A stretch of 64,000 nucleotides of DNA. Origin: Pachyseris speciosa (taxonomy: Eukaryota; Cnidaria; Anthozoa; Scleractinia; Pachyseridae). The notes beneath the pieces are model-generated. The model had not been told where the DNA came from and did no database searches. It was given only the letters and a program-made list of their open reading frames with translations. The stretch's first letter is position 1; the number at the start of each line of letters is the position of its first letter. A program made the translations under genes and the position numbers. The stretch is from positions 1 to 64,000 of the forward strand of contig JAEMWC010001017.1 in the NCBI GenBank assembly GCA_016490735.1. The letters are read 5' to 3'. Shown in pieces: positions 4,444 through 64,000 of the stretch.

Positions 4444-5459
4444 CAGATATTAATTTGCCACATCCGAGAGAAAGGGGTTAGTTTCCAAATAAAGTACTGT
4501 TTAGCTCCGTTCCGTTCGGTTTTTAAACTTGTGTTAGACATGCAACTCAAGCAGTTTAAGGCTTGGATCAGGGGCGATTAATAGAGAAAACGGTTTTTGT
4601 GTAATAAAACATTCCAGAGGAATGACACTGAAACGAAATTCGGCACATCGGAAGTTCTCATCAACCTTAACATTTTCATGTACAATAAACGTTATCATAA
4701 ATCACTTGATGTGTCACGTGACCATTTCTTTGAAATTATCACTTATTTGAGGAGTAGGTGAGGGTTGTAGGATATGATATCGAAAAAAAAAACGCTTTTC
4801 TTATGCGTATTAATTATTTCCAGCGTCTCACGTTTGGAGTGACCGTCCATCGTTCTCAACAAAAAAGTTTCGAGGGCAAAGGTTATTTTTTGTCCCAGAA
4901 TTCAACCCTTAGCTGTTGATAATTTAAGGCTAAAACTCGAGAAGGAGAGAAAGATATTGGCGATCAACCATATTTCTGAACATATTTCTAAACCCAGGCC
5001 TTAAACTGCTTGAGAAATGCGGTATTTAACTTCATCTCGGCAGTTGGTCCTGAGAACAGGCATCTTAAAGTTCTTCGACGCCAAAATTCATTCTTTGGAG
5101 ATATGTCAAGGATAAATAGCGTTTGCAAAACATTTTCAGCCAATCTTCTCAACATTTTTAGCAAAATAGTTACTACAAATGCACAAGGGTGAAGAGTCGC
5201 AAATATCGCAAGAAAAACTAATTTAGCAAAGAGAAAATGAAGCCTCGAATTACCGGTACGCAAAAATCGCAAAAAAAGTAAAGAATTTTGTCTGCAATGA
5301 CAAAAATCCTCTTAGAAAGAATCACAGATATCGCATGAAGAACAAATTTAGCATACGAATTAAAGGAGCCGTGAAAATGAAAAGGCAAAGATGGCCCTCT
5401 GCGATATGTGAATTTCGCAAAAATCTTAAAAGTAACAAGGGTTTCGTCTACAACGACCG

Positions 5460-13906: not shown

Positions 13907-15900
13907 TTACTTCTCCTTTAAATTGTAGTAACACATGACGTATTTCACACACATTATCCCATCTTGGATAACGTTGTAAAAATCGGAAGATGGAATTTTT
14001 CCTATAAGCTGCCCCTCCTTTATTTCTCTGGCTTTGAAAGAATATATCTTTTCCGAAGCTGTACCTGGCATCAAGACAATCCTACAAGAAGAAATGTAAT
14101 TTAATCAATGAACTAAAACTAAAAAAATGTAAAAATGTACGTGTATGAAAATGCATCGACAACTTTGGTAATTGTACGATTGGTTGCCTGTTTGTCAGTG
14201 TCGCTTTAGGTCAGTCGATGGTATCTTCTTTTCCTCAGTCTTTTTAATTTTGTTCGATTTTAGATTCTAGCAGTGGGTTATGTATGCCATTCAAACAACA
14301 CGAATGGGCCGGTTAAATCCAAGAATCTCAAATTGTTATCGGCGAGGAATTATTTACCCTCTGACTCGCTCTAGCAACAAAATAATAACAGCTTTTTACT
14401 CAATGCAATGTGCACCTTACCTAGCTCCGACTATCACTGATGTAACAGAGGACACCAGTTGTAGGGATAGGTGGAATTCTCCTCCATTAAGGGTAAGTAA
14501 CCCTCTCCACCTGTTTCCATTTGAGCATCGATAGTCGGTACTCGCTACGGACTTGGCAAGGTTCCTGCAGTCGTCAGCCTTCCAACAGAAGGAGACCACG
14601 CTCTCTTCCTGAAGAATCCAGGTTGGCTTCATTCTCTGAAAATCAAGAGAATAGTATTGATGTTAATTTATTCCAGTGCTACACTGTAATGGAAACTTAT
14701 GCAGCAAACACATTTATCTGGTTTTTTTTTTTTGTGTGTGTGTTTTTGTTTTTTGTTTTTTATCTCGAATGTTTTGCTGTATTGTTCACAAATGAATCTA
14801 TACCGGCCGTTCAATCAATTTCTTTTTCAACAATGACCACAGGTGGTACCGGATTGAAATTGTGATGATGTGTATCAATACTTTGTTGTTCTTGTGGTTC
14901 TTCTTTATTTACCCTTTTGTTTTTCTATTATAAAAACCAGTATCGTATCTAACCTTGAAATGCATCAGGCCCCGTAGTTTTTGCACTTCTCCTGCCTGGA
15001 GGACAGCATGGGTCGATGCGGCGGTCGAGAGATGTTCCTGTGTACTTTTTCTTTTTACGATGGTAGCACAGCCTTTGACCGTGCATTGCACAGCCTTTTC
15101 AGGGCACTCGCTCAAATGAAGCGTCATATAACATCTGTAAAAACAGAGAAGTTCAAAGAAAAAGTTAAGTCGTCTTAAAAGCGCCAATGGAGATGTCTAG
15201 TTTCCATCATTTTCATTGACTTTTTAAACAATATGTTTTGTGAAATGCAATAAGCGGTGTGTATAAAATTGCTGATAAAATTTTTAGAACATGCCAAAAT
15301 GCAAACCGGCCCAAGTGTCGCTCTTTTGCCAAAGACAGCGCTACCGAATCAAAATAAAAACAAAAACAAACAAACGAACAAACAAATAAAATTAAATTAA
15401 AAAGAAAATTAATTATATTATGTAAAACATACCGTGGCAGGTTTGTTCCGCAGCTAAGCGGACAAGGGATTCTTTTGTGTGAGCACAAAGAATTAATGTG
15501 CTCACGCATAGAATCCCTTGTCACGCTTTTCCCGCAGTCTTGACAAGCAATATCCTGTTTCGCGCACCGAGAAACGTGCAGTGTCATTTGATCTCGTTGC
15601 TTGACTTCGCTGCACCCTCTGTTGGGACAATTCACGGGGAGTTTTCCACATGTGTTGGAGTGTTGGGTGTGGTTCTCCAGAGTGCCTTGCCATTGGCAGC
15701 CATTGTTAGTGCACTGAATGTCCAACTTGTCAATGATGTCATTGAGGATGATATTGACATTCAGCGCAGTGGCGCGAGGAAGAAGCTTTTTACAAAGTGG
15801 ACATTTGGGTATTGATTCCAAATTAATCAACTTTGCAAAACAGCTCTGGCAACCGGAGTGCCCACACACTAGAGTCACAGGCTTCAGCATCGTTGACAGG
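13907..15900 (-). CDS. TRAF-like protein: partial RING, TRAF zinc fingers, MATH-like domain
   Basis: Four minus-strand exons join in phase: 15,900-15,433, 15,134-14,954, 14,635-14,421 and 14,081-13,907 (stop TAA at 13,909-13,907). Exon 1 encodes the second half of a RING finger (VCGHSGCQSC ... CPLCKK) and then Cys/His-rich TRAF-type zinc fingers with repeated C-x4-C...H-x-C spacing. Exon 2 completes the finger array (HLSECPEKAVQC). Exons 3 and 4 give about 130 residues whose pattern (SFCWKADDCRNL, RCSNGNRWRG, a hydrophobic C-terminal strand) suggests a divergent MATH/TRAF-C domain. TRAF family proteins couple receptors to ubiquitin-dependent NF-kB/JNK signalling in the cytosol. The first RING cysteines and the start codon must lie in an upstream exon, which I did not find. 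All three introns have GT-AG ends. Confidence 0.75.
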
Positions 15901-16265
15901 CTTTGAAATAAAGAAATCAATCCAAAAAAAAAAAACGTTACCAAAAATATATGATTGGTTTTTTTCTTTCATTTCATTCTTGTATTATTTCACTACAAGA
16001 GTACAAATAACGACAACTCTAAAAATAAATTTTGTATCTAACGTTAATAAGACCTGCCGAAAAAGGTGTTCCTGGAAATAATGCAGTGCGTCTAACCAGT
16101 AAAATGAGATGCTATTACATATTGAAACATGCAAATAATTGAAACAAAATATATTATAAAAATAAATAAAACGGAGGTTAAGAAACATATCTAAACGTCA
16201 ATCAACACAATGAAAAGTCCATACAAGACATTCTCCGACCAGAAATAGTATGTGTCATTATAATA

Positions 16266-45679: not shown

Positions 45680-46032
45680 TTTTCAACGTGAGAGTCGTTA
45701 TCACGCGAAGGCGTGTATCGAGCGCCGAAGCTGCGAGCTCCTATAGGGGGTTGGGGGGGGGGGGAGGGGTTCCTCGGGCATGCTTTCCCGGGAATTTTTT
45801 TTCCTCAGTAGTATAGTGTTTGGGGGTACCAGATCAAAAATTAATCAAATGGAATCACATACTGATTTAGGGGGGTGTTTTAGCAAAATGATCTCGTATT
45901 TTTGGCAATCTATAGTTTATTAAAAATGCGTGACTTTCTCGGAAAAATCACCAAGCGTGACATTCTCGGAAAAACAGGAAATGAGTCATGTGTTAGTAAC
46001 ATATAAAATAATATCTCATATAATAGTATAGA

Positions 46033-46533
46033 ATGATTTGTAATTCAGATATCCATATCAAATTGATATCAAATGGAGAATATCATTGTCCTTTTTGTGA
46101 TGAGAGAATAGCAGAACATAACGTTAAAAAAGAGGAACCGTGTTGTGATGAACAGAATGTGTTGAATGATAATGGAGCGATTATATGCGTAAGTTGTGGT
46201 TCAGTTCATGGTTACAATGTTGTGAAAGAATACATTGATTTTCATGACAATATGTATAAAATAAAGAGAAAGTCTGTATATCACCGGAAGTATCATATTG
46301 AAAATGTAATAAATAAAATATGTCGCAAGAATGGATTTCAAATTTCTGTAAAAGATAAGGGTAAAATATTTAAAATATTCGAAGAGATAGACAAAGTGCT
46401 TCCCTTGGTGAATAATAAACGTAAAAGAATGATTAGCACTAAATTTATGCTTAAGCAAATATTTTTAATGCTTGATCTTCCATTTGATGAAATAATAGTT
46501 ACTAGATCAAAAAAAGACGCTTGGATTTTATGA
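46033..46533 (+). CDS. VLTF3-like late transcription factor
   Basis: This 166-residue open frame has no breaks. It has a CPFC pair (residues 19-22), then CC (37-38) and CVSC (52-55) that could form zinc-binding sites, and a conserved-looking aromatic/basic stretch (YHRKYHIENVINKI). The layout IICVSCGSVHG plus YHRKYH is that of the poxvirus late transcription factor VLTF3-like family, found in large DNA viruses and some smaller relatives, where it acts at late viral promoters. The N-terminal CPFC segment may be an extra zinc knuckle. It is the first gene of the element, on the plus strand, converging with the minus-strand cluster that follows. A motif ATAATAGTATAGAATG, resembling the element's promoter motif, immediately precedes the start. 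The assignment rests on motif pattern only. Confidence 0.7.
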   Translation: MICNSDIHIKLISNGEYHCPFCDERIAEHNVKKEEPCCDEQNVLNDNGAIICVSCGSVHGYNVVKEYIDFHDNMYKIKRKSVYHRKYHIENVINKICRKNGFQISVKDKGKIFKIFEEIDKVLPLVNNKRKRMISTKFMLKQIFLMLDLPFDEIIVTRSKKDAWIL

Positions 46534-47059: not shown

Positions 47060-47482
47060 TTATACAATAATTCTATTAAAAATGCAATAAAGAATCCCAG
47101 ATATTTGGCCAGATAATGGAGATCTTTTTCTTCGCTTTGATGTAAATAAACAAGGTATTGCATAACAATGTCCACGGTCTAATGAACAAGCATTATAGAA
47201 TCTTCCATATGCATCATGAAGTATACCATGTGTTTGTAATGTATCAATCCAACCAAGTGTATGTTCCAAGAAATGTGTCAAGCATCCACTACCAGGCCCA
47301 ATAAGTCCAATATCCTTGTGAGTATATAAAATACAGTTGATTGGGATAAATGTATTGAAATGCTTGTGATACAGATATTGGTAAACCAAAGCTGATTTCA
47401 AAATTGAGTCATCAATATTATGATGTTGTTGTTTTGTTTCTTTAAAAAAGAATTTGATATATTTAATTGCTTCTTTTATCAT
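47060..47482 (-). CDS. Unknown Polinton protein with HDAYGRF motif
   Basis: A complete 140-residue frame. The start is supported by an upstream TATAGTATATG, a weak version of the element's promoter motif. Its ATG overlaps the stop of the fibre gene before it (ATGA). Recognisable features are a Gly/Pro turn (GLIGPGSGC), a Leu/His-rich helix (THFLEHTLGW), the HDAYGRF motif and a C-terminal basic cluster (SKRRKRS) followed by a hydrophobic end. The HD pair recalls phospholipase A2 active sites, but there is no calcium loop and the context differs, so I do not assign that function. It is followed immediately by the membrane protein gene. Confidence 0.55.
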   Translation of the reverse strand: MIKEAIKYIKFFFKETKQQHHNIDDSILKSALVYQYLYHKHFNTFIPINCILYTHKDIGLIGPGSGCLTHFLEHTLGWIDTLQTHGILHDAYGRFYNACSLDRGHCYAIPCLFTSKRRKRSPLSGQISGILYCIFNRIIV

Positions 47483-48626
47483 ATACTATATCGTTGTATT
47501 AAAATTTGATGATGGTCTAAAATTGTTTTATCATCTAATATGAAATCAAGATAGACACAAAAGAAAGCAATGGAGCCATCTAAAGGTGCAATGGAGTTTG
47601 GATTCAAATCACCAAAAGTCATTTGTATGCTGCCAGTTCTATTAGCTGCTGTAAAACTTCCAATATGTTTTTTGTTCCAATAGATTTTACTTTTGTTTGT
47701 ATTAGGAGAAGATAAATTGTCCCAGTGAACAGATAAACAGTGCCAAACATTAATTTGGCCTAAATCATTTACTGAATAATCTGCTATTTTTCTGAAACTT
47801 TGTATTGATGCTTCTGGACCAAAATATACACAATTTGATTGATCAACACCACTTATAACTCAATTTGAACCATTGTAATAACTTACAAACTTATCATAAC
47901 CTCCATTATCATGACCAAAAAGCCCATTTTTCCATGGATTTCCACCAGTATTTGAATTTAATTTGTAAACAATGAAAATATTAACAGCATTATTATTTAA
48001 ATTGAGTTGACTTATCATTCTATGTGATCCATCAAACTTTAAAAAATAACGTCCATTAAGTTTCTCAGCCTTGGTACAAATAGTGGGTCTTAAGTTTAAA
48101 GTTGATTGTGTTGCATTATTTTCTTCATTAGAGAGATCGTATAATGTTTCAACTTTTCTGTTTCGTTCATATCTACAAAATTATTATTCGCTCTGTCGAT
48201 TTGATATACACATTTTGAGTACAATCTAATAAATTCAGAAACCCACAGATCCAAAAAACTATCTCTAACAATATCAGAAACTTGTGATTTGACAACAACA
48301 TGATTGTCATCATTGCCAGATTTTACATTAGTCAAAAGCTTGTTTCCAAGATCATAGTTTCCATCTTGTGTTAATGTAAATCCATCACCTTTATCACCTT
48401 TGGGGCCAACAGAACCTGAAACACCTTGTGGACCCTGTGGGCCTTGTGGGCCAACTGGACCTTGTGGTCAATGCGGACTTTGTGGACCCTGCGGACCAAC
48501 TGGACCTTGCGGACCTTGTGGACCAATTTGACCAATATCACCTTTATCACCTCTATCACCATTATCACCTTTTGGACCTCTTTCACCAGTGCTATCTGAG
48601 GTTGGTAAATCATTAAATAATCCCAT
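47479..48626 (-). pseudogene. Collagen-like fibre protein 1, broken
   Basis: It starts MGLFNDLPT at 48,626 under an exact copy of the promoter motif. A collagen-like Gly-X-Y tract of about 45 residues follows, interrupted by an in-frame TGA at 48,470-48,468. The same frame continues with a helical region to about 48,130, where a frameshift occurs. The next frame contains a lectin/LamG-like beta-sandwich, interrupted by another TGA (near 47,860), and ends at a TGA overlapping the next gene's start. The first residues match fibre gene 2, so the two are paralogues. Collagen-like trimer followed by a globular head is the usual build of viral fibre or receptor-binding spikes. The adhesion role is inferred, and this copy cannot make the whole protein. 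Confidence 0.7.
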
Positions 48627-48642
48627 ATAATATTATTTTAGA
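48624..48642 (-). promoter_or_regulatory. Promoter/initiator motif ending in the start codon (fibre 1)
   Basis: Minus strand TCTAAAATAATATTATATG, an exact match to TCTAANNNAATNNTATATG. The final ATG is the start of fibre 1, and the upstream end abuts the stop of fibre 2. Confidence 0.75.
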
Positions 48643-51600
48643 TTAATTCATAATTACTTCAAGAGTGAATGTTGTATCAAATGCTCTACTATTGGGATGT
48701 GAATAGTCAATTATAAAATAGCCTCTCGATAATGATTTGTTGATGTTGACCGTTGTGATGTTTCTATTTAAAGAAGATTGTCTGTGTTCATAAATAGTTG
48801 CTGGTAATGGCAAAGGCCCACCACCTTCAGCTTTTGTCTTGAAATAAAATATTCCGGGCTTGTTCTTTGTATGATATACATTTTCTTAATATAAAAGTTA
48901 TTGTTATGAATAACTAAAAAATCAGAGCCATTTATCAATACAGGCTTTAAAACATTCTTATTATGTCCTTGTTTGGCTTTGACAGAGCAATTTAAATATT
49001 GTATTTGACCGATTATTCCATTCCCATTCAAATTTAGATCACCTCCTAATTTCGGTCTGTAAAGAGCAAATCCACCCAAATCGAAAGCTGTTTCCATAGT
49101 TACACCTGTAACGCTTGAACGAAATAGATTCAAACTATTATTATGAATTCTATAGCCATTCAGATTTAAATCACCACCAAGTTTAGCCTCTTTTATTAAA
49201 TAGCTGTTCATATTAATATTATTCAGCATTGTCAATTCGCCATTGTCTCCACCAAACAACCAATTTTCATTTTCTTTCACATCAAAAACAATCAAATCTA
49301 AATCAGTTTGTAATTGTATTTTTTCATTTACGATTTTATAAGCCTCTGTGAAGTCGTAAACACTTGATGGAACGTCTCCAGCTTCAAAATCAATACCATA
49401 TGCAACACAATGAACTTTGTACTTATTTGGATAAGTTGGGTTAGCATTAATATGTATTGTACAATATAAATATTCAGGTGGTGAACTTACTGAAGGTTTT
49501 TCAATCCATAATAAATATCTCGAATGATCTTCATTTCTGTTGTCAAATTTTCTCCCTACAGTTTTATGAATTGTAATTCCACCATTTGCATTGAATGTTA
49601 CACTACTAAGACTCATTCCTTCATAATCAGGAAATAGCCATTCAAGAATGAAAGTGTATTTTCCATCTTTTATTGTATACATATTAAAACCAATTCTAGC
49701 TCTGTAAATATGATTAGCTTCTTTATTCAAGTCTATATCAATGACCTTTTTTGAAATCAAATGTGGTGAACGAGGTAAATTGACATATCCATTAACTGTC
49801 AAGCCATATTCAGTACTAACTTCATCGATATCATTCATCAAATATTTGAAAGCATTCTTTGGATGAGAAGCAGATGAAATATGACTTTTTTCTAATTGAT
49901 CTAAATTTACGGCATCAGTTTTATTTGTTCCTTCTTTTAAGTCAATGATTTTATGCCCTCCAAGTTTTAAGTCTGCAGCCATCGCATTTGTTCCATTCAA
50001 TAATAAAGTGTTTGCTCTGATGGTTTGTGAAGCTCGATTTAAAACTCTAAAGTTCACTGCATCAGTTTCATTCACCACGTCCGCTAAATTCGTCACTCTA
50101 TTTCCACCCATCGACAAATTTCCATACATCGCAGTCGAACCGTCTCGTCGAAGAAAATACTCGTCGGCATACCTTTTTGTCGCCGCATCGTCTGCGTTGA
50201 CAGGTGGAGCAAGATCAGTAATGGCATTGTTGTTCATATTTAGATTTTGTTGTGCAATCGTATCGAGTTTGGTTTGCAACCTCTGGTCCACATAACTTTT
50301 GTTTACAGCGTCTTGTGGGTTTGAGGGGTTATCCTGCAGGTTGAGGATTTTGTTTAATTTCATGTCAACATTACTACCAAACGCAACATGACCGTTTTCA
50401 ATTTCATAAGCTGGGTCATGGACAAAGTAAGACAAGTTGGTATGAAAGCCATAAGCTCCATAAACAATGATATGTGTTTTGGTGTTAGACGCAGGAGCAG
50501 TGCTGGAAAGTTCCACCTGTATTGCCGCTTGCCCACCACTGGTTTTTCGATTCGGAAAAGCTTCTTCATATAACCATCAACGTGTGGAGTTTGGGGAAAA
50601 GGTTTTTGAAATGGCTGTCCCGCATCTCGTATATTTACAGTTGGAATGAATAAATCAATTGTTGCATTTTGAGGGTTGGAGGGTGAGAAAAACTCAGTAA
50701 CAAATGTATACTGTCCATTTCTTAAAGATGTCACATTAAAACGAATTTTGGATGTAAAGTTGCCTCTTCGTTTGATGAAAAAAGACAATGACGACTTGTT
50801 TATGTGGTATGGTGATTTGTCAAAATTCTCAATTTGAAGGTTTTCCACACCACTGACTGCAGAAGACTTGGATATGTCTTTTAACAGAAAAGCGAATGGG
50901 TTGCGTTGAGTACCAGATGCTGAAAGAACAAGGTCATCAACATACTTTTTGTTGGCAGAATCTTTATCAGAGTTTGGAGATCCAACATTTGTTATTTTAT
51001 TGTCACCCATGTCAAGATCACCAGTCATTACAACACTTCCATCTTTTTTAAGAAATGGAGAAACATCAATGCCAGCAATACCAGCAATTTCAGTATCAAC
51101 ATACCCCTTTGTGGCTGTATCATCGTTTGCAGTTGGTGTTGATACATTAGTCAATTTGTTACCTCCAAGATTCAAATCAGAAGTCATCGCAACACTTCCA
51201 TTTAGTTTCAAAAAATTATTGTTCACATAGTTTCTATTTACAGCTGAATAACCGAATCTTGGGTTATCTGGTATGCCAAATAGATCATTTCTATTCATGC
51301 TGACAGGTGCATAAATTACACCACCAGTGTTTTTATTAAGGAAATCAGCTGTTTTATTATCAACGTAAGATTTGTTTACAGCGTCTTGTGGGTTTGAGGG
51401 GTTATCCTGCAGGTTGATGATTTTGTTTAATTTCATGTCAATTTTACCATCGAATGCAACATTACCATTTTCAATTTCAAAAACAGGATCGTGAATATGT
51501 GATAAAATGATATTTGAAAATCCGTAAACACCATAAACTATAACATAATGTTTTTTATTATTTTGTAAATATGGTGAAATCAACAATAACTCCATTGATG

Positions 51601-52272
51601 TTGACCATTACTTGTTTTTTCAAGGAAGAATATTCTTTTGAGATAAGCCTCTACAATATGAGTCTCTGGAAATGCTCTTTTTATCGAATCTTTTCTTTCA
51701 ACTAAATTGGATGACAAAGCATCATCATCAACTGTTGCATTATTTGGATTACCGTTTGTATAAAACTCAACAGCAAAAGTGTATCTTGAAACTTCCAATT
51801 GTGACAAATCAAAACGAAGAACAGTTGTCTGGCTAGCAGTAGGAATAACAAAAGACAAGGCTTTTTTATTTATTAAGTAAGGGCTTTTATTAAAATCTTC
51901 CAATTTGAGATCATTTGCATTTCTAATAATAGTTGTTTTTGATATATCTTCAAGAAGAAATTTAAATGGATTAACACGTGTTCCTTCAATTGATAAAACA
52001 GCATCGTTGACGTATCTCATATTAACAGCATCTTTGTTTGAATTTGGTTCTCCAACATTAGTCAAGCGTTTATTTTCAAGATCATAGTTACCATCTTGTG
52101 TTAATTTGAATCCATAACCCTTATCACCTTTATCACCTTTTGGACCAGCAGGACCTCTATCACCTTTATCACCTTTTAGACCTTGTGGACCAGCAGGACC
52201 TCTATCACCTTTTGGACCTATTTCACCAGTTCCTATATTGTCTGGAGTTGGTAAATCATTAAATAATCCCAT
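48643..52272 (-). pseudogene. Collagen/tail-fibre protein 2 with repeated modules, frameshifted
   Basis: It starts MGLFNDLPT at 52,272 under an exact promoter motif. After a short Gly-X-Y tract come phage-tail-fibre-like repeats with signatures DAVNKSYVD, DDAATKRYADEYF, LGGNKLTNV and GDLNLNG. They alternate with a beta-sandwich of about 120 residues (NPFAFLLKDIS ... YTFVTEF). There are three tandem sandwich modules. The reading frame changes near 51,590 and 50,510 and again near 48,850, with stop TAA at 48,645-48,643. The apparent starts at 51,595 and 50,516 lack the promoter motif, supporting a single broken gene of about 1,200 codons. A block of about 70 bases is almost identical at 50,300 and 51,380, pointing to recent duplication or gene conversion. 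A capsid fibre role is inferred from architecture. Confidence 0.75.
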
Positions 52273-52288
52273 ATAATATTAGATTAGA
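52270..52288 (-). promoter_or_regulatory. Promoter/initiator motif ending in the start codon (fibre 2)
   Basis: Minus strand TCTAATCTAATATTATATG, an exact match to the 19-nt consensus, ending in the ATG of fibre 2. Confidence 0.75.
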
Positions 52289-52924
52289 TAACACCGTAAA
52301 AATTTCTCTTCACTGTTTTCATTGGTTTGTCAACATAACAGAAGGAATACGGTTTTTTGGTTGCTTCAATATACTTCTGCTTATCGATTGCTAGTTCTTG
52401 GGAGATACAGTTTCTCTCTCTTGTGGATGGGAAATCATAAAGACAGAAATGGCTACAATTAAGCCTAACAGATTTTGGGCAACCGTAAAATGACTGTGTT
52501 AGGTACAGCACTGAACAATTTTTATGGCGACCTTGAATGAAATAGCTTATGATTTGATCTTGTTTTTTATCAGTCACGAAATCATCAAATACAACCAGTC
52601 GCTGTAAATCAGTGTCTTTGATTTGTTCAACAGGAAGTATTTCATCTTGACTGCATACTAAAACAGGGTAACCAACCTCTTTGCTTATTCCATCCATCAC
52701 TTGCTGTAAATATTTATATTTGTCTTGATCCAAGTTTTTGGCGTATAGATGTATTTGATCATAATAGACAAAGGTTCCATAATCAGATGCAAGAACAAGG
52801 TTGTCTTTCCAGATCCAGAATTTCCAGCCAATAACATTCTGAATGTATCTTTTGGCATATACGGATACAACTGTCTGAATGAATTATTTGAATTCTGAAC
52901 GATATCATAATTTGGAATTTCCAT
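52284..52924 (-). pseudogene. FtsK/A32-type DNA-packaging ATPase, frameshifted
   Basis: The first frame (from 52,924) carries Walker A (LLAGNSGSGKTT) about 30 residues from the start. The second frame (to 52,284) carries Walker B (RLVVFDDFV), a sensor-like segment (GRHKNCSVLYLTQSFY) and a C-terminal YSFCYVD. The frames switch near 52,780-52,790. In Polintons and adenovirus-like or NCLDV lineages this enzyme pumps the genome into the capsid. Length (about 210 codons in total) fits the compact Polinton form. It is divergently transcribed from the coiled-coil gene with only 35 bases between the two start codons. Confidence 0.85.
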
Positions 52925-52939
52925 ATGTAATAGTTTAGA
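52922..52939 (-). promoter_or_regulatory. Degenerate promoter motif of the packaging ATPase
   Basis: Minus strand TCTAAACTATTACATATG, one base shorter than the consensus with ATT for AAT. It ends in the ATG and is back to back with the plus-strand motif at 52,944. Confidence 0.55.
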
Positions 52940-52943
52940 TTAG

Positions 52944-52962
52944 TCTAACACAATTGTATATG
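52944..52962 (+). promoter_or_regulatory. Promoter/initiator motif (coiled-coil gene)
   Basis: TCTAACACAATTGTATATG, an exact consensus match. It decides the start codon as the ATG at 52,960 and not the TTG two codons upstream. Confidence 0.75.
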
Positions 52963-53784
52963 GATATAGAACGTATGAAAAGGCTTCTTGAAAGTGGAAT
53001 TGAAGCGAAAAAAGTTCGTGAAGCTATCAAGACTTATGAATATGCAAAACAGGATGCATATGATACAACATCAGAATTACTTAAACCCTCTATTGATGTC
53101 CAGAAGAGTGTGAAAGAAAGTGTTGACAAAAAACAGGATAAAGTCATTGAACAGTTGAAAGAAAACCAGCAGGATTTAAAACGAGGACTTGATGATGTTA
53201 TAGAATCTAATATAAGAGCAATTACAATGGGAACGGAACTTCCTTTAGCCATTGAAGCGCCTAAAGAAGATGAAATGAGGGCAAGAAACCCAGCATTTTA
53301 AATATCGATAACTATTTCGATAAAGATGACAGAATTATATTGAAAAATAACAAGCTTTTGAAACCATCCGATTTAACTCAAGTCACCCCACAAAAACTTC
53401 TTGAAGAAAGGAAAAAGCTTCAAAAATTGCCCAAGATCTAGGAAGAAGAAAAAAAAATCAATCACTGTAGAAGAAAATTAATCTCATAAAAGAGAAATAC
53501 AAGCTTTGAAGAAATATAGAGAAACGATTACAGATGTATTGAGTTCTTACAAATACAAAACAGGGCAAGGAATGAGAAAGAGAAAACAATATGGAGCTAA
53601 TGTTGTCCATTATAATAATATCAATGACTTGCTTTCAAGACTACAGTTGCTGGTGGGTCTTTTTGCTGGCAACAACAGTATGAGTGTCAGAAATGAGTTT
53701 GTAAAGATATTGCATACTTTAAGCAGACTTGGATTAGTTGGAAACGATGAGCTGAATAAAATAATGATGAAATATCTAATGTAA
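52960..53784 (+). pseudogene. Coiled-coil structural protein, broken
   Basis: The first piece (to stop at 53,301) starts MDIERMKRLLESGIEAKKV and is a long charged coiled coil with a VQKSVKESVDKKQDKVIEQL segment. Beyond the stop, coding-like sequence continues in other frames (KPSDLTQVTPQKLLEE near 53,370; KKYRETITDVLSSYKY from 53,506), ending with TAA at 53,782-53,784. The second large frame begins without an ATG and without a promoter motif, so I take all of it as one gene with at least two breaks. It lies next to the packaging ATPase and penton. A coiled-coil gene of this kind in the structural cluster is usual for Polintons. A capsid-associated role is inferred; the exact function is unknown. 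Confidence 0.6.
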
Positions 53785-53793
53785 TTGTATATG
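53775..53793 (+). promoter_or_regulatory. Promoter/initiator motif (penton gene)
   Basis: TCTAATGTAATTGTATATG, an exact consensus match. It overlaps the last codons and stop of the preceding gene and sets the penton start at 53,791. Confidence 0.75.
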
Positions 53794-54575
53794 ACAGAAA
53801 TTTCATTACGATTCAACAGTAAAAACAGAGACAAAATTGGTGTTAGTAAGAGTCATGATTTTGAAAAAAGATTCAATACACCTATCAAATTAACGAATGA
53901 TTTGAAATATGAAATGGCTGTGAATGTTATCAATATGACATACAGTTGGTACAACATCAGAGAATTTTTTGGGAATAATCAAATTAAATATAGCTATGAC
54001 AAAGGTGTAAACTGGGAAACAATAACATTCGTTGACGGGATGTATTCATACGACGATATCAATAGTTACATTCATGAGTATATGAGTAAAAATAGCCATG
54101 TACTGAATCCATCTGAAACAGACAAATCAAAATTCAAGTATGGTATCAATATATATTTCGTTTTGTCAACATACCGCATTTTGATTGAACTCAATGAAAA
54201 TTATCGTGTGGATCTGAGAAATAATGATTTCAGAAAACTTATCGGTTTCGATTCAAAATTAGTTTCAGCAACAGAATATGGAACAAATCTACCAGATATT
54301 ACAAGAGGAGTGGATGAAATTTATATCAATTGTGATAATGTGATAGATAGCATTGTTGATGGAAATAGTACAAATACAATCGCTGTTATTCCAGTCACAG
54401 ATCTCGTCAGAAGTTTACCTTTCACTTACAAACCTCGTTTTCTTTCATGGAATCCTATCTCAACACACACAATCAGCTCAATACGTTTTTATGTCACTGA
54501 TTCTTCTAGACACCAGTTGATTTTAATGGGATAGATTGGTATATTGAGTTATTCTTGAGAGGTGTGGAATTATAA
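53791..54575 (+). pseudogene. Penton (minor capsid) protein, frameshift at the C-terminus
   Basis: About 245 residues are open from MTEISLRFNSKN. Late signatures are VIPVTDLVRSLPF and WNPISTHTISSIRFYVTD, which match the pattern of Polinton penton/minor capsid proteins with a single jelly-roll fold that form the capsid vertices. The frame then runs to a stop at 54,532-54,534. The expected C-terminal strand (FNGIDWYIELFLR) is present in the next frame, ending TAA at 54,573-54,575, so a single frameshift lies near 54,510. Only the last 20 or so residues are affected. The gene sits between the coiled-coil and basic protein genes. Confidence 0.8.
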
Positions 54576-54591
54576 AACCTAATAGTATATG
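54575..54591 (+). promoter_or_regulatory. Partial promoter motif (basic protein gene)
   Basis: AAACCTAATAGTATATG keeps the 3' half of the consensus (AATNNTATATG, here AATAGTATATG) and ends in the ATG at 54,589. The TCTAA half is degenerate and closer. Confidence 0.5.
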
Positions 54592-54837
54592 AGGAGATTT
54601 GAATACGTGGAATATGAAAAATATCACACAAAACAGGGTAAAGGAATAGTGAGCGATGCTGTCAAAACAGCTGTAAAAAAAGCAGCTACAACAATTGGTG
54701 AACATGTTGGCAAAAAAGGTGGTGACAAAATAATAGAACTTTTAAGTAAGAAAAAGAGAAAAAGTGGAACTGAGAGTGAGATTAAGACTGGGGGTGAGAT
54801 CAAAAGAAAGAGAGGTAGACCTCGAAAAATTAAGTAA
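54589..54837 (+). CDS. Basic AT-hook protein, candidate DNA-condensing core protein
   Basis: A complete 82-residue frame. The middle is an Ala/Lys helix (GIVSDAVKTAVKKAATTIGE) and a KKGGDKIIELLSKKKRK segment. The end is an AT-hook (KRKRGRPRKIK), which binds the minor groove of AT-rich DNA. Its position between penton and major capsid genes, small size and charge suggest a core protein that packages DNA, like adenovirus core proteins in role but without clear sequence similarity. The Gly/Ala helix could instead indicate a membrane-active peptide. The start is supported by the partial promoter motif. No breaks. Confidence 0.65.
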   Translation: MRRFEYVEYEKYHTKQGKGIVSDAVKTAVKKAATTIGEHVGKKGGDKIIELLSKKKRKSGTESEIKTGGEIKRKRGRPRKIK

Positions 54838-54843
54838 CTTTTA

Positions 54844-54862
54844 TCTAACACAATAATATATG
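54844..54862 (+). promoter_or_regulatory. Promoter/initiator motif (major capsid gene)
   Basis: TCTAACACAATAATATATG, an exact consensus match. It differs from the copy at 52,944 at only two bases and ends in the ATG of the major capsid gene. Confidence 0.75.
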
Positions 54863-56144: not shown

Positions 56145-56261
56145 ATGGAATAATTAATTAAATAATTAAATTAATTAAATAAATTAAATAAAATAAATAA
56201 TTAAATAATTAAATTAAATCATTATTTATATTAAATACAATTTAGTATAAACATATATTAT

Positions 56262-57568
56262 ATGACTACTTATCATCCTCATGGAGTGACACTGTCACAA
56301 GGTCAGAAAGAAAAGCTGGCAAAAGCTATTAAATCAAATTCAGCGGTAACATTGAGGCTGACTCATGATGAATTATCTGGCGGTGATCAACTTATGTTGA
56401 CAAAGACACAAATCAACAAACTGACAAAATCAAAAAGAATGGAACTGGTTCAGATTTGAAGATATCAAAAGCACAAGTCAGAAAGGCGGTTGTATATGGA
56501 GGTTCTCTTTGGTCAAGTCTTTTTTCACTTGGAACAAGACTATTACCATATGCAGGTAAGGCAGTAGCTAAAGCGACTCCAGCATTGGCCACAGGTGCTC
56601 TTTCTTCATTAGCAAGTCTCGGCATTGATAAACTATTTGGGAAGAAACAAAAAGGAGGATTCATTATTCCCAATGAAAACTTGCCCCAACTATTGAATTT
56701 TGGAAATTTATTGAATGTGAGACAAATGGCTGATCTTGTAAATGCAATGCAGTCTGGTGGACAACTTGCTATCAAACCAACAAAAACTCAGTCTGGTGGG
56801 TTTCTTGGAACACTTTTAGCAAGTATTGGAATTCCTCTACTTATGAAAGCCTTGACTGGAAAGGGTTTGCATGTTGAACACAGCCGTTCTAGACGGTCAA
56901 TACCAGTTCATGTTCCAGATCACATTGCAGTCAAAAAAAATAAAAGTGGTGGGAAACATGCTATGATTCCATGGCAATCACCCCCAGTTGTTGGTACATG
57001 GGATAACCCAATCGGTTATGGAATGAAAAAAAAAGACCAAAAAGGGAAAAGGGCTTCTACTAGGGAAAGACAGTCCATTCAATTCAATCCCCATACTAGG
57101 AACCATTTTGTAAATAAACCATTATCCAACCTTGATTTGATCAATTGGGTGAAACAACTTGGAATAAAACATTTTAGAGGAGTATTTTCAAGAGACAATC
57201 TGCCGAGACAAATAAAAAACAATGAATGTGGGATAGTCAATCTTGATTCCAAAATTGGACCTGGTACTCATTGGGTTTGTTATAGGAATTTCAAAAATGA
57301 TAAATACGGTGAATACTTCGACTCTTTCGGTTTAATGATGCCAACAGAAGTTCAAATGTATATGACTACAAGCGGTAAACAACTTGAATACTCTGGTGAT
57401 GAGATACAAGAAAGGGAATCAGTATTATGTGGATATTGGTGTTTATACTATCTTCTTGAGAGACAAAAAGGAACATCTATACTGGATATAATACACAATT
57501 CCAGATTCAATCCAGCAGATGTGAGTGTCATTCACAGATTCATCATAGACTACTTTGAAAATATGTAA
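56262..57568 (+). pseudogene. pVI-like minor capsid protein joined in frame to adenain-like protease
   Basis: The first frame (56,262-56,459) starts MTTYHPHGVTLSQGQKEKLA. A frameshift near 56,440 leads into a 370-residue frame. There an amphipathic, Gly/Ala-rich pVI-like part (TRLLPYAGKAVAKATPALAT; GGFLGTLLASIGIPLLMKAL) occupies roughly residues 1-190. A cysteine protease of the adenain/Ulp1 type (C5/C48) occupies about 215-370, with His272 (GTHW), Asp289 (FDSFG), Gln318 and Cys325 (LCGYW). The Gln-to-Cys spacing of seven matches adenain. In adenovirus pVI disrupts endosomal membranes and activates the protease, which matures the particle. As far as I know the two are usually separate genes in Polintons; here no stop separates them. 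The second frame's start lacks the promoter motif. Confidence 0.8.
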
Positions 57569-58362: not shown

Positions 58363-59341
58363 TTGGTGTTCCAAAAAACGGAAAAAGCCGTCGAGGAAGA
58401 AAACTGGCAAGAAAAATTAGCAGATGAATTACATGCACCCATAAAACGCAATTTTACTCCGCGGCGTGTGATTGTAAATAAAATTGATGAAATATGGGCA
58501 AGTGATCTAGTTGAAATGCAACAGTTCAGTAAATGGAATAAAGGTTATCGATATCTTCTTATGGTTATTGATGTCTTCAGCAAATATGGTTGGATTGTCC
58601 CATTGAAGGATAAGAAAGGTGAATCTGTCACTGAAGCATTCAAAACAATATTCAAGGAGGGCAGAAAACCGCAGTATTTATGGGTCGACAAGGGAAAAGA
58701 ATTCTATAACAAACACTTGAAGGACTTGCTAGGGAAACATAGTGCACAGATGTACTCAACTGAGAACGAAGAGAAGTCATCAGTAGTTGAAAGATGGAAT
58801 AGGACAATCAAGTCCAAAATGTGAAAGCAGTTCACTCTTCAAGGTAATACACAGTATTTAGACATGTTGCCAAAATTAGTGAAACAGTATAATAATACCA
58901 AACATTCAAGCATAAAGATGACACCTACAGAAGCTAGTAAAAAGAAGAATGAAGGAACTGTTTACTTCAATTTGTATGGTGATATGGAGCCATTAAAACA
59001 GAAACCAAAATTTAAAATAGGTGATAAGGTCCGGATATCTAAGTATAAACGGAATGTGTTTGACAAGGGCTATACACCAAATTGGACAGAAGAAGTGTTT
59101 ACAGTTGATAAGATCCAATACACTAATCCAATAACATACAAACTAAAAGATCTGAAAGGTGAAGATATTGAAGGGAGTTTTTATGAACCTGAATTATTAA
59201 AAGCCAGACAGGATGTTTTCCGTATCGATAAAGTCATTTGCAGAGACTATAAGAAAAAAACAAGCTTTGGTGAAGTGGAAGGGATATAGTGATGACTTCA
59301 ACAGTTGGATACCGATCAAGGATTTAAAAGAAATATTATAA
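58363..59341 (+). pseudogene. Retroviral-type integrase with C-terminal chromodomain, broken
   Basis: The RVE core has IWASDLVEM (Asp48), LWVDKGKEF (Asp109) and ENEEKSSVVERWN (Glu143), numbered from 58,363. The frame carries an in-frame TGA at 58,822-58,824 and then continues unchanged (LVKQYNNTKHSSIKMTPTEA) into an SH3-like region (FKIGDKVRISKYKRNVFDKG). A frameshift in an A-run near 59,255 moves the last part, a chromodomain-like ALVKWKGYSDDFNSWIP, to another frame ending TAA at 59,339-59,341. Such integrases insert Polintons with a 6-bp target duplication, and the chromodomain may direct them to modified histones. No ATG is evident at the start: GTG at 58,363 opens the frame, and the true start may lie elsewhere. 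I see no N-terminal HHCC zinc motif. Confidence 0.85.
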
Positions 59342-60298: not shown

Positions 60299-60508
60299 AT
60301 GGAGAATCAAAATATCAAAAGAGGCAAAGGAAGACCTAGAAAATATGAAACAAAAGAAAAAGCAAAAGAAGCTTTCAGAATATATAAGAACAATTACATG
60401 GTAAATAAAGAATGGTACTGCGAAGTTTGTAATAATGGTAAAAATTACACACTGGCAGGCAAAACTCTTCACAATAGAACAAAAAAGCATCAAAGAAATA
60501 TAGTTTGA
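60299..60508 (+). CDS. AT-hook plus single zinc-finger protein
   Basis: A complete 69-residue frame. Residues about 8-15 form an AT-hook (GKGRPRKY), and the C-terminal half is a C-x2-C...H-type finger (WYCEVCNNGKNY ... LHNRTKKHQRN). Both parts bind DNA or RNA, so a small transcription or chromatin-associated protein is likely. It starts at ATATATAATGG, a weak initiator-like sequence, and lies between the Bro-N gene and the polymerase. Confidence 0.65.
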   Translation: MENQNIKRGKGRPRKYETKEKAKEAFRIYKNNYMVNKEWYCEVCNNGKNYTLAGKTLHNRTKKHQRNIV

Positions 60509-60639
60509 ATCAGTTCAAAGGATTCCAGTATTTGGGATCACTTGAATTCTCACCCCTACTTAAACGCGCCATTGAAACTCACTTAAAATAAAAAATATAG
60601 ATATATAATAGATGGAAAAAAATTATCTCACGCATTAAT

Positions 60640-63600
60640 ATGAATAAGAAAGAATACAAAAAACTGAGCAAACGACAGCTCATCGAAATGTTAATCAAAA
60701 TGAATGAAAGGCTTGAAAAAATTGAGAAGCAACAGAAGAAACCAAAAATAGTTATCGTGAATGATACAAAACCTGTGCCTGCACCTCGCAACAAAATAAT
60801 TCTTCCACCAATGGAATTCAGGGACAAACCAACCCAGCACCTCGCAAGAGTGTAAAGCAGATGGCTCAAGATTATGAAGACAACATAATTCCTCCGCCAA
60901 TAGAGTTCAGAGACAGTCCTGTGCCAACCCCAGAACCAAGAGACCAACACCTGCACCGAGGACTAAGATTATACAAACAGAGAAAGCTCTAAAGGGGTAT
61001 ACCAAGTCTTTTGAAATTGATATAAAAAATGACAAAGACCCGCTAGAGCAACTACTAAACACAAGAATGGCAATCGAAACACACATTAAAAAATTGTTAA
61101 ATGAAATGAAAGGACTGAAATTTGTTGAAACACTCAAGGTAACATTCACAAAAATGACTAACGGAGCAATAGAATACAAAACCGCATATTTCAACAGTCA
61201 AGCTGAAACACTTGTGAATAATCTGGAAGTCACTGAATCACTGCAATTGTCAAAACAGCAAATCTTGAATAAGATAGCTCAATGGATATCTGAAGGTTCA
61301 GGTTGGACTGTTGATTCAGTTGATAGTCATTATATCAATGTTGTCAAATATCAACCAATGAGAGGTTCTTCATACATAAAACTACCGGCAGAATTACGAA
61401 ATAGTGCCAAAGGTTTAGTTAACTTGAAAAATGAAGATAATGAATGCTTCCGGTGGTGTCACATCAGACACTTGAACCCACAAGAGAAATACCCACAGAG
61501 GATTAAAAAAGTTGATAGGAAATTTATTGAAAATTTAGATTATTCAGGAATTGAATTTCCAGTGACTACCAAACATTACAATAAGATTGAAAAACAAAAT
61601 GAGATCAACATCAATGTTTTCGGTTATGAGGACAAACAACCATATCCAAAATATGTATCAAAAGAGAAATATGCAGACTGCTTGAATCTGCTTCTAATAA
61701 CTGAAAATGAAAACAAGCATTATGTGCTAATCAAAGATTTCAATAAGTTTATGTACAATCAAACAAAGCACAAAGAAAGAAAACACTTTTGTATGCACTG
61801 TCTTCAATGCTTCAGCTCTGAAAGGGTTCTGAACGATCACAAGGACAACTGCATGCAAGTAAATGGCACACAGGCAATAAACATGCCAAACAAAGATAAC
61901 AACATACTGAAATTCAACAACTTTCATAAACAACAGCAGGTACCATTTGTGATCTATGCTGATTTTGAGGCCATCACTGAAAAAATACACGGTTGCCAAC
62001 CCAACAGTGATAAATCATATACTGAAGCGCATTAGAAGCATACTGATTGTGGATATGGTTACAAAGTTGTTTGTTGTTATGATGATAAATACAGCAAACC
62101 AGCAGTAATATACAGGGGTGAAAAGGCTGTGTACAAATTTATGGAAGCTATGCTGGAGGAAGTCAAATATTGCAAGAATGTTGTGAAAAAAAATTTTAAC
62201 AAACCATTGAAAATGACTAAAGATGATGAAGAGAAATTCCAAAAAGCCAAAGTTTGTCACATTTGTGATAAAAAATACACTGACAAAGATATCCGAGTTC
62301 GAGATCATTGTCATATTACCGGCAAGTATAGAGGTTCTGCTCACCAAGATTGTAATCTGAAACTCAGAGTGAACCCAGATGAAATAAAGATACCAGCCAT
62401 ATTTCACAATCTAAGAGGCTATGATAGTCATTTTATTATGCAGGAGATTGGAGCCATTGTTAAGAAGCACACTTACAAAAACAAGAAAGGTGAAGACTGT
62501 CAAATGAATATCAATGCTATCCCAAATAACATGGAGAAGTATATGGCTTCCATGCTTGGTAATCACTTGACCTTCATTGATAGCTTCCAATTCATGAGCT
62601 CAAGTTTGGAAAAACTTGTCAGCAATCTTCCAAAAGAAGCCTTAAAATACACCTCACAAGAGTTCAAGGGAAAGGATCTTAATTTGATGGCGCAAAAAGG
62701 TGTTTATCCTTATGACTATATGGATAGTTTCGATAAATTTAACCAAAACCTGCCGTCAAAAGAAAAATTTTATAGCATATTAAGTGATGAACACATCAGT
62801 GATGAAGACTATGCGCATGCTCAAAATGTGTGGAATACATTCTCAATCAAAAATATGGTCGATTATCATGATCTGTACCTTAAAACAGATGTACTCCTAC
62901 TGGCTGATGTATTTGAAAATTTCAGAAAAACATGCCTTGAGTACTACAAACTGGACCCGTGTCACTATTTCACATCTCCAGGGCTATCTTGGGACGCCAT
63001 GCTTAAAATGACTGACATTAAACTAGAGCTTATGGTTGATATTGATATGTTTCAATTCATTGAAAAGGGTATGCGTGGAGGAATCAGTTATATAGCCGAC
63101 AGATACGGAAAAGCAAACAATAAATACATGAAAGATTACAATGAGAAGGCGCCCTCGAAGTACATCATGTATCTAGATGCAAATAATTTGTATGGTTGGG
63201 CTATGAGTCAATATTTACCAACCGGTGGTTTCAAATGGTTGACAGAAAAGCGGATCAGCAAGTTAGACCTGGCTGTCTATAAAGAAGACAGCAACAAAGG
63301 TTTGATACTTGAAGTTGATTTAGAATACCCCCAAGAGTTACATGATCTTCACAATGACTATCCACTGGGACCGGAAAAGGTCAAAGTGACTGGGGACATG
63401 CTATCAAATTACTGTACAAACATCGCGAAGAAATATAAAATATCAACTGGTTTGGTACATAAACTGATACCAACATTAAGCAACAAAGAAAAATACGTGC
63501 TCCATTATAGGAACCTCCAATTATACACTGATCTCGGTTTGAAAATAACTAAAGTCCATCGAGTTCTAAAGTTCAATCAGTCCCCTTGGCTCAGACAGTA

Positions 63601-64000
63601 CATCGACTTCAACACTCAGAAAAGAACTGATGCTAAAAATGCCTTTGAGAAAGACTTTTTCAAGCTGATGAATAACAGTGTATTTGGAAAAACGATGGAA
63701 AACCTCAGAAAGCGAGTAGACGTCAGATTAGTCACCGATGAAAAGAAACTATTAAGAATTGCTGCTAAACCGACATATGTTAGCAGTAAAATCTTCAATG
63801 CAAATTTGGTAGCTGTTCATAAGATAAAAGAAACACTTACTTTAAACCGGCCAGCATATGTAGCAATGTGTATCCTTGATCTAAGCAAGACACTGATGTA
63901 CGATTTCCATTACAACTACATTAAAGAGAAGTATGGAAACAAGGCGAAGCTGCTCTTCACAGACACAGACTCATTGACCTATGAAATTGACACCGGAGAC
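60640..64000 (+). pseudogene. Protein-primed DNA polymerase B (pPolB), runs off the window
   Basis: The N-terminus (MNKKEYKKLSKRQLIEML) and a Pro-rich PVPAPR-type linker lie in three frames with shifts near 60,830 and 60,935. From about 60,940 one frame runs to the window end except for an in-frame TAG at 62,033-62,035. Motifs in order: a C2H2-like finger (HFCMHCLQCF, 61,790); Exo I YADFEA (61,960); an endonuclease-VII/HNH-like insert (CHIC...RVRDHCHITGKYRG, 62,255-62,350); Exo II with RGYDSHF (62,415); Exo III YHDLYLKTD (62,865); palm motif A LDANNLYGWAM (63,175); motif B KLMNNSVFGK (63,665); motif C FTDTDS (63,955). This family replicates linear genomes from a terminal protein. The TAG separates the N-terminal region with Exo I from the rest. 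Confidence 0.93.

What the first reader, a model, noticed from the sequence alone, without database searches (positions are those of the whole stretch)
48624..54862. A 19-nt motif fused to the start codon marks the Polinton's genes
TCTAANNNAATNNTATATG occurs exactly at five gene starts, with the final ATG as initiator: 52,944, 53,775 and 54,844 on plus, and 52,288 and 48,642 on minus. Weaker versions end in the ATG at 54,589, 52,924, 47,482 and 56,262. It sits on both strands and always points into the gene. A motif with 14 fixed positions found five times exactly at starts is unlikely to be chance. Because the conserved bases reach the ATG, transcription probably starts at or just before the start codon, as in poxvirus late promoters (TAAATG). 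I know of no described motif of this kind for Polintons. The function is inference.
Basis: partly seen in the sequence, partly recalled or inferred. Interest (0 to 1): 0.88.

Follow-up and report, generated by a model that had tools for sequence, protein, structure and literature searches.

The report
Start-codon promoter of Polinton genes
A virus-like mobile element in this genome, probably an animal's, carries the same short DNA signal at the start of many of its genes, together with a gene resembling a poxvirus late-gene activator, so it may bring its own viral on-switch.

Summary
TCTAANNNAATNNTATATG occurs five times exactly in the Polinton, each ATG starting a gene; 300 dinucleotide shuffles gave none. 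The 984-Mb source genome has 5,388 exact sites against 8 for the reversed pattern. The 100 sites listed form 28 clusters, no singleton. Of copies chosen by protein, not by motif, 19 of 20 major-capsid starts have it within one mismatch. Fixed positions change less than N positions and flanks.

New here: it is two boxes. Box A, TCT[AC]A, also precedes PolB (18 of 20). The exact two-box form precedes capsid (16 of 20) and the element's Pox_VLTF3-like gene (15 of 20), not PolB (0 of 20). At VLTF3 the ATG lies 2-5 nt beyond the motif, favouring a promoter over a translation signal.

Most likely: an initiator-type core promoter, plausibly served by that VLTF3-like factor, akin to mavirus/CroV 'TCTA' and mimivirus late promoters. 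Transcription starts were not measured and no other species gave a relative to test. New variant of a known kind.

The parts
45807..45989 (+). left terminal region of the element, most likely beginning AGTAG at 45,807; the element runs off the right edge of the window
   Evidence: blastn against 43 own-genome loci: matches begin at 45,797-45,807 in 11, later in the others, with breaks near 45,985-45,989
45982..45988 (+). TGAGTCA, AP-1 type site upstream of VLTF3 (CRE TGACGTCA in many other copies)
46014..46035 (+). promoter variant TCTCATATAATAGTATAGAATG at VLTF3; the two boxes end before the ATG
46033..46533 (+). VLTF3-like gene; open frame 168 codons here, 189 in most listed copies
   Evidence: Pfam Pox_VLTF3 6.3e-5, 23.2 bits, cut-off 25; 33 of 41 aligned proteins, this one included, match
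47480..47498 (-). weak motif, 3 mismatches, gene 47,060-47,482
48624..48642 (-). exact motif, collagen-like fibre gene A (frame ends after 52 codons)
51580..52272 (-). collagen-like fibre gene B, open piece
   Evidence: Pfam Collagen 4.2e-6, 26.9 bits, cut-off 27.2
52270..52288 (-). exact motif of fibre gene B; its TCTAA contains the stop codon of the ATPase gene
52284..52924 (-). A32-type packaging ATPase, in two pieces here
   Evidence: Pfam Pox_A32 1.7e-7 for 52,284-52,697; 213-aa homologues in L009, L016, L019
52922..52939 (-). 18-nt variant of the motif at the ATPase start
52944..52962 (+). exact motif, gene 52,960-53,301, divergent from the ATPase
53775..53793 (+). exact motif, gene 53,791-54,534 ('minor capsid' is my label; no Pfam match)
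54573..54591 (+). motif with 2 mismatches, gene 54,589-54,837
54844..54862 (+). exact motif, start of the major capsid protein gene (frames broken here)
   Evidence: homologue in L016 matches Pfam DJR-like_dom at 3.9e-6, 26.7 bits, cut-off 27
56246..56264 (+). motif with 2 mismatches, gene at 56,262
60623..60642 (+). box A only (TTATCTCA) before the PolB start at 60,640

Best explanation
The motif is a compact two-box core promoter of a Polinton. Box A (TCT[AC]A, usually after W-A) lies about 14-21 nt before the start codon of virion, VLTF3 and PolB genes. Box B (AATNNTATA) follows at fixed spacing; it overlaps the ATG of many virion genes, ends just before that of VLTF3, and is not seen in this form at PolB. 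Transcription probably begins in or just upstream of the TATA, giving nearly leaderless mRNAs, as in poxvirus and asfarvirus late genes. The element's VLTF3-like protein probably recognises it or brings polymerase to it. No RNA polymerase subunit appeared among the 19 pieces scanned with Pfam; the rest of the element lies outside the window, so the polymerase is probably the host's or a helper virus's. Shown: the motif, its conservation, its place at starts, the VLTF3-like gene. Inferred: promoter activity, start site, the factor, the late timing.
For: Genome-wide 5,388 against 8; 100 of the 100 listed in clusters; 5,388 of 5,414 TCTAANNNAATNNTATANG sites have the ATG. Protein-picked capsid starts 19 of 20, shuffled mean 0.04, maximum 1. 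Pairwise difference 0.073 at fixed positions (mean over nine genes), 0.274 at N positions, 0.394 in flanks; for capsid 0.021, 0.341, 0.532. The marked gene products are not similar to one another except the fibres. Divergent starts 35 nt apart each carry it. VLTF3 genes keep it with the ATG moved 2-5 nt. Exact two-box form: VLTF3 15 of 20, capsid 16 of 20, PolB 0 of 20. VLTF3-like gene in the element: Pfam in 33 of 41 aligned proteins; 150 copies scored of 1,865 first-look candidates, 131 of the 150 without a stop by my count.
Against: No transcript data. Binding of VLTF3 to the motif is untested; the link is that both are in one element and VLTF3 carries the motif. Box A at PolB weakens a purely late reading. 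Of 79 protein-anchored virion starts 34 have two or more mismatches and 7 three or more; the exact two-box form is in 33 of 79 and box A in 54 of 79. For the gene at 47,482 fixed positions differ in 0.273 of comparisons. In the VLTF3 set at up to two mismatches, the best of 300 scrambled motifs scored 18 of 20 (mean 1.17) against 17 for the true motif. L012, with the most diverged VLTF3 of the copies, shows no clear motif there by eye. The window's VLTF3 hit is under Pfam's cut-off. Copies share ancestry, so counts are not independent.
Confidence: 0.6

Rival explanations
1. Virophage-like dependence: the motif imitates the late promoter of a co-infecting giant virus, whose polymerase and factors transcribe the Polinton, as proposed for mavirus with CroV.
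For: mavirus and type 4 EMALEs carry 'TCTA' flanked by AT-rich DNA, the CroV late motif, reported upstream of all mavirus genes; ChlorV shares it. The Megamimivirinae late motif contains TMT-N10-TAKA, the spacing of TCT-N10-TATA here, seen in 49 of 79 virion starts; all 6 VLTF3 starts tested match the published pattern within one mismatch, 4 exactly.
Against: The element has its own VLTF3-like gene. Only 12 of 79 virion starts match the published mimivirus pattern within one mismatch (shuffled mean 2.0, maximum 7), and one of 2 Bro-N starts, which lack box A, matches it exactly. A Sputnik paper finds the shared promoter not to be the main mechanism of the transcriptional changes in the giant virus (passage). 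No giant virus of this host was looked for. The spacing comparison is post hoc.
Confidence: 0.15
2. Host RNA polymerase II reads the motif as an initiator-type promoter through host factors, and VLTF3 acts elsewhere.
For: The elements are integrated in the genome; VLTF3 has CRE or AP-1 sites in 43 of 51 unique upstream regions, which fits host control of at least that gene.
Against: Among the 100 sites listed none lies outside a cluster, so no sign of use at host genes in that part; I recall no animal promoter of this kind.
Confidence: 0.13
3. A 5' untranslated or translation-start element, such as a ribosome or reinitiation signal on longer mRNAs.
For: The ATG is fused in nearly all exact sites; one motif contains the stop codon of the gene before it.
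Against: At VLTF3 genes the boxes keep their spacing while the ATG moves 2-5 nt; at one MCP (L013) the ATG is shifted by one; the divergent pair leaves 35 nt for both promoters, so a promoter must lie there or inside the opposite gene.
Confidence: 0.1
4. Chance in AT-rich DNA, or plain common descent of copied start regions without function.
For: The DNA is AT-rich, copies are related, and up to 3 mismatches give many chance hits.
Against: Shuffles give none; 300 scrambled motifs give a mean of 0.03 of 20 capsid starts, maximum 7; in 88 IMG/VR stretches 3 of 92 exact sites start a frame of 60 codons or more; fixed positions differ less than flanks, N positions and third codon positions.
Confidence: 0.02

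Closest known systems
Mavirus / EMALE type 4 and CroV late promoter 'TCTA' (passages seen in PMC8547959, PMC10945749, PMC6723459, PMC5294985)
   Same: TCTA flanked by AT-rich DNA upstream of genes; for mavirus upstream of all genes; Polinton-related integrating element
   Different: Here a second box, AATNNTATA, at fixed spacing next to or over the ATG; a VLTF3-like gene in the element; host apparently an animal; no helper known
Megamimivirinae late regulatory motif (passage seen in PMC11464507)
   Same: Two-part; TMT-N10-TAKA spacing equals TCT-N10-TATA; AT-rich flank
   Different: Published pattern met within one mismatch by only 12 of 79 virion starts
Poxvirus late and intermediate promoters with VLTF3 (passages seen in PMC5294985)
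   Same: Initiation sequence TAAAT(G/A) with no 5' UTR, upstream core element; a VLTF3 factor (recall for its role)
   Different: Sequence differs; no RNA polymerase gene seen in the part of the element in view
[quoted passage not shown]
   Same: TATA-like sequence needed at the initiation region; two-part structure
   Different: Start site not measured here; the passage names no TCTAA box
Adintovirus-like elements of Amoebidium with VLTF3 (passages seen in PMC11244446)
   Same: Polinton-related element with VLTF3, capsid and PolB genes
   Different: No promoter motif in the passages I saw; host is a protist relative of animals

Membership tests
Polinton/Maverick element | family B DNA polymerase | tested here: met
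   DNA_pol_B_2 1.3e-19 at 62,036-64,000; many rows with open frames of about 1,260-1,296 aa at PolB starts. Protein priming not tested
Polinton/Maverick element | retroviral-type integrase | tested here: met
   rve 1.6e-8 at 58,516-58,824
Polinton/Maverick element | A32-type ATPase | tested here: met
   Pox_A32 1.7e-7, above cut-off
Polinton/Maverick element | double jelly-roll major capsid protein | tested here: inconclusive
   DJR-like_dom 3.9e-6 for one of one homologue scanned, 0.3 bits under the curated cut-off; window pieces no match
Polinton/Maverick element | terminal inverted repeats | tested here: inconclusive
   left end near 45,807; right end outside the window
Polinton/Maverick element | adenovirus-type cysteine protease | tested here: not met
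   no Pfam match for 56,726-57,568 or the 453-aa homologue in L009; a diverged protease is not excluded
VLTF3 family | Pfam Pox_VLTF3 match | tested here: met
   33 of 41 aligned proteins at E 0.01 or better, best 2.5e-10; window copy 6.3e-5, under the curated cut-off
VLTF3 family | late transcription factor activity | not testable with these tools
   needs biochemistry; structure prediction was off
CroV/mavirus-type late promoter | TCTA with AT-rich flanks upstream of genes | tested here: met
   TCT[AC]A in 19 of 20 MCP, 17 of 20 VLTF3, 18 of 20 PolB and 54 of 79 virion starts; most VLTF3 and part of the PolB starts have TCTC in place of TCTA
CroV/mavirus-type late promoter | late expression driven by a giant virus | not testable with these tools
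   no expression data
Megamimivirinae late motif | published consensus within one mismatch | tested here: inconclusive
   VLTF3 6 of 6; virion starts 12 of 79, shuffled mean 2.0, maximum 7
Poxvirus late promoter | TAAAT initiator at the start codon | tested here: not met
   gene-balanced profile ends AATANTATATG

The most novel reading that the evidence does not exclude
An animal Polinton carries a self-contained nucleocytovirus-style late transcription switch: a VLTF3-like factor, itself under the same promoter and behind host CRE/AP-1 sites, turns on the virion genes through a start-codon initiator. Host stress would raise VLTF3, and VLTF3 would raise capsid genes, on borrowed polymerase. 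This would be a living link between Polintons and giant viruses.
Probability: 0.35. Interest if true: 0.92.

Novelty: new variant of a known kind. Interest (0 to 1): 0.82.

Why it matters
How animal Polintons express their capsid genes, and whether they still make particles, is open (recall). A promoter candidate defined to the base, with 5,388 exact copies in one genome and a late-factor-like gene in the same element, makes that directly testable with ordinary RNA and reporter data. [quoted passage not shown]

Tried and rejected
Relatives elsewhere: four protein scans of viral contigs and one of genome contigs confirmed no relative, so the motif is shown in one genome only. A motif scan of viral contigs gave 88 stretches; the 80 listed have one hit each, and of 92 exact sites in the 88 stretches 3 start a frame of 60 codons or more. 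PDB by sequence gave nothing convincing for VLTF3 or MCP.

I first took PLA2 as a gene without the motif. As a negative this was wrong: in L018 the PLA2 domain lies inside a 282-aa frame whose start has a two-mismatch motif. The integrase start could not be fixed and is not used. Bro-N (2 copies) and the gene at 60,299 (3 copies, by eye) lack box A; too few to lean on. 'Late only' was dropped once PolB showed box A. A protein-picked test of the gene at 53,791 and a genome count of TCTAA at other distances from ATG did not complete (127).

Sampling: L009-L022 were chosen from motif hits. VLTF3 (20 of the rows listed, which overlap), MCP (20 of 94) and PolB (20 of 151 matches) were chosen by protein and spread by hand over the lists. 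In one search L165 was anchored 3 nt before its ATG and counts as a hit; with a narrower frame one search counts 18 of 20. The miss is L162.

Literature searches: in a library of openly licensed papers only. PMC11071308 had no occurrence of the terms I sought; in PMC12220804 and PMC12721341 they occur only in reference lists. PMC12945077, PMC11998528 and PMC5636890 were seen in passages.
Full report
The element. The right part of the window holds a decayed Polinton that most likely begins at 45,807 with AGTAG and runs off the right edge. Pfam finds a Pox_VLTF3-like gene (46,033; under cut-off), an A32 ATPase (52,284-52,697), collagen-like fibre pieces, a PLA2-like domain, an rve integrase, Bro-N and PolB. 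A homologue of the gene at 54,860 matches the double jelly-roll family 0.3 bits under its cut-off, which supports calling it the major capsid protein (MCP). 'Minor capsid' for 53,791 is only my label. The genome is 983,672,442 bases in 2,368 contigs; from recall these figures fit the coral Pachyseris speciosa, which no call confirmed. A TRAF-type zinc finger gene at 15,213-15,965 fits an animal host.

The observation. Five exact sites lie at the stated places and each ATG opens a gene, though from 48,626 the frame stops after 52 codons here. Dinucleotide shuffles of the 18.1-kb element give 0 in 300. Genome-wide there are 2,699 + 2,689 exact sites against 5 + 3 for the reversed pattern. The 100 listed fall into 28 clusters (gap under 6 kb) with no singleton, which extrapolates to roughly 1,500 clusters. 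Letting any base precede the final G raises the count only from 5,388 to 5,414.

Conservation. In the window and 14 stretches of other copies there are 47 exact sites: 43 start with the N terminus of one of four gene classes, 1 is collagen-like, 3 open short frames with products unlike the rest. Anchoring starts by protein alignment, 45 of 79 virion-gene starts match within one mismatch and 72 of 79 within two; shuffled upstreams give means of 0.28 and 3.1, maxima 3 and 10. The mean pairwise difference over nine genes is 0.073 at fixed positions, 0.274 at N positions, 0.394 in flanks and 0.258 at third codon positions; the gene at 47,482 is the exception with 0.273 at fixed positions. These stretches were chosen by motif. 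To remove that bias I took 20 of 94 MCP matches from a protein search: 16 exact, 19 within one mismatch, shuffled mean 0.04; differences 0.021 fixed, 0.341 N, 0.532 flank. Scrambled motifs reach a mean of 0.03 and a maximum of 7 of these 20.

Two boxes. The gene-balanced profile reads about TWATCTAA NNN AAT A N TAT ATG. Of 20 VLTF3 starts picked by protein, 15 match TCTAANNNAATNNTATA within one mismatch (mostly TCTCA) and 17 within two, and in these 17 the ATG lies 2, 3, 4 or 5 nt beyond the motif. The looser count is weaker evidence: the best of 300 scrambled motifs reached 18 of 20 there, mean 1.17. Genome-wide the VLTF3 form TCTCANNNAATNNTATAGAATG occurs 327 times against 2. Of 20 PolB starts picked by protein, 18 have TCT[AC]A at -14 to -18 (shuffled mean 1.0, maximum 5), but none matches the whole motif within one mismatch and 5 match within two (shuffled mean 1.9, maximum 6). 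The exact two-box form is in 15 of 20 VLTF3, 16 of 20 MCP, 0 of 20 PolB and 33 of the 79 virion starts. So box A is shared, and box B separates capsid and VLTF3 genes from PolB.

Why a promoter. The motif is on both strands, on genes whose products are unrelated apart from the fibres. The divergent ATPase and 52,960 starts are 35 nt apart in the window with their TCTAA boxes back to back, and 46-79 nt apart in L012, L013, L016 and L018 (positions). Little else fits between them. A TATA box this close to the ATG cannot act at the usual -25 to -30, since transcripts would begin after the start codon; an initiator role is the natural reading. The moving ATG at VLTF3, and a one-base shift at the L013 MCP, speak against a translation signal. 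These are inferences from anatomy.

The factor. The VLTF3-like protein has 268 relatives at E 0.01 or better, 120 of them listed, 80 of those 120 with PF04947 by my count. Of 41 aligned, the window's included, 33 match Pox_VLTF3 (best 2.5e-10) and 3 the TFIIB zinc ribbon. In this genome there are 1,865 first-look candidates; of the 150 scored, 131 have no stop by my count. A PDB sequence search found no convincing relative. VLTF3 lies next to the left terminal region. Upstream of it 43 of 51 unique copies have a CRE or AP-1 site, most at -42 to -53 and in either form at the same place; shuffles average 0.59, maximum 4. Copies are related, so this is a lead only.

Known relatives. Mavirus and type 4 EMALEs share 'TCTA' with CroV late genes (passages); ChlorV has it too. 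The Megamimivirinae late motif reads T[AC]T-N10-TA[TG]A inside a longer pattern, the spacing seen here in 49 of 79 virion starts (spacing 12 also scores, 36 of 79, which I put down to the TAT just before the CTAA). The full published pattern fits 6 of 6 VLTF3 starts within one mismatch but only 12 of 79 virion starts, and one of 2 Bro-N starts exactly. Poxvirus late promoters have TAAAT at the initiation site, which is not what is seen here. In megavirus chilensis VLTF3 falls in the expression cluster before that of the virion genes (passage), which would suit the order proposed. VLTF3 in a Polinton relative has one precedent that I saw, in Amoebidium; an mBio 2024 passage says it was not detectable outside Nucleocytoviricota. 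In the listings and passages I saw, no Polinton promoter of this kind is described.

Verdict. The finding is real and reaches further than claimed. Promoter function is likely, the VLTF3 link plausible, late timing and start site inferred. New variant of a known kind.

Noticed in passing
45,982-45,988 and upstream of VLTF3 in own-genome loci: CRE (TGACGTCA) or AP-1 (TGA[CG]TCA) sites upstream of VLTF3 in 43 of 51 unique copies, mostly at -42 to -53; 8 of 51 have none. A possible host stress switch.
   Followed up: partly
L010 9145-, L020 5520-, L021 8013-: Short frames (75, 52, 59 codons) between ATPase and fibre gene with products unlike the other genes, each with an exact motif.
   Followed up: partly
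L011 4,628-6,352: PLA2 and integrase domains lie in one 575-codon open frame; in the window, L014 and L018 they are in separate frames.
   Followed up: no
G000 whole genome: Roughly 1,500 motif clusters by extrapolation, with many open VLTF3, MCP and PolB frames among the listed matches, which may point to recent activity.
   Followed up: partly
54,589-54,837: Product contains KRKRGRPRK, an AT-hook-like stretch (by eye); perhaps a DNA-packing virion protein.
   Followed up: no
48,768-52,272: Fibre pieces combine collagen repeats with phage tail-fibre-like and YadA-stalk-like repeats.
   Followed up: no
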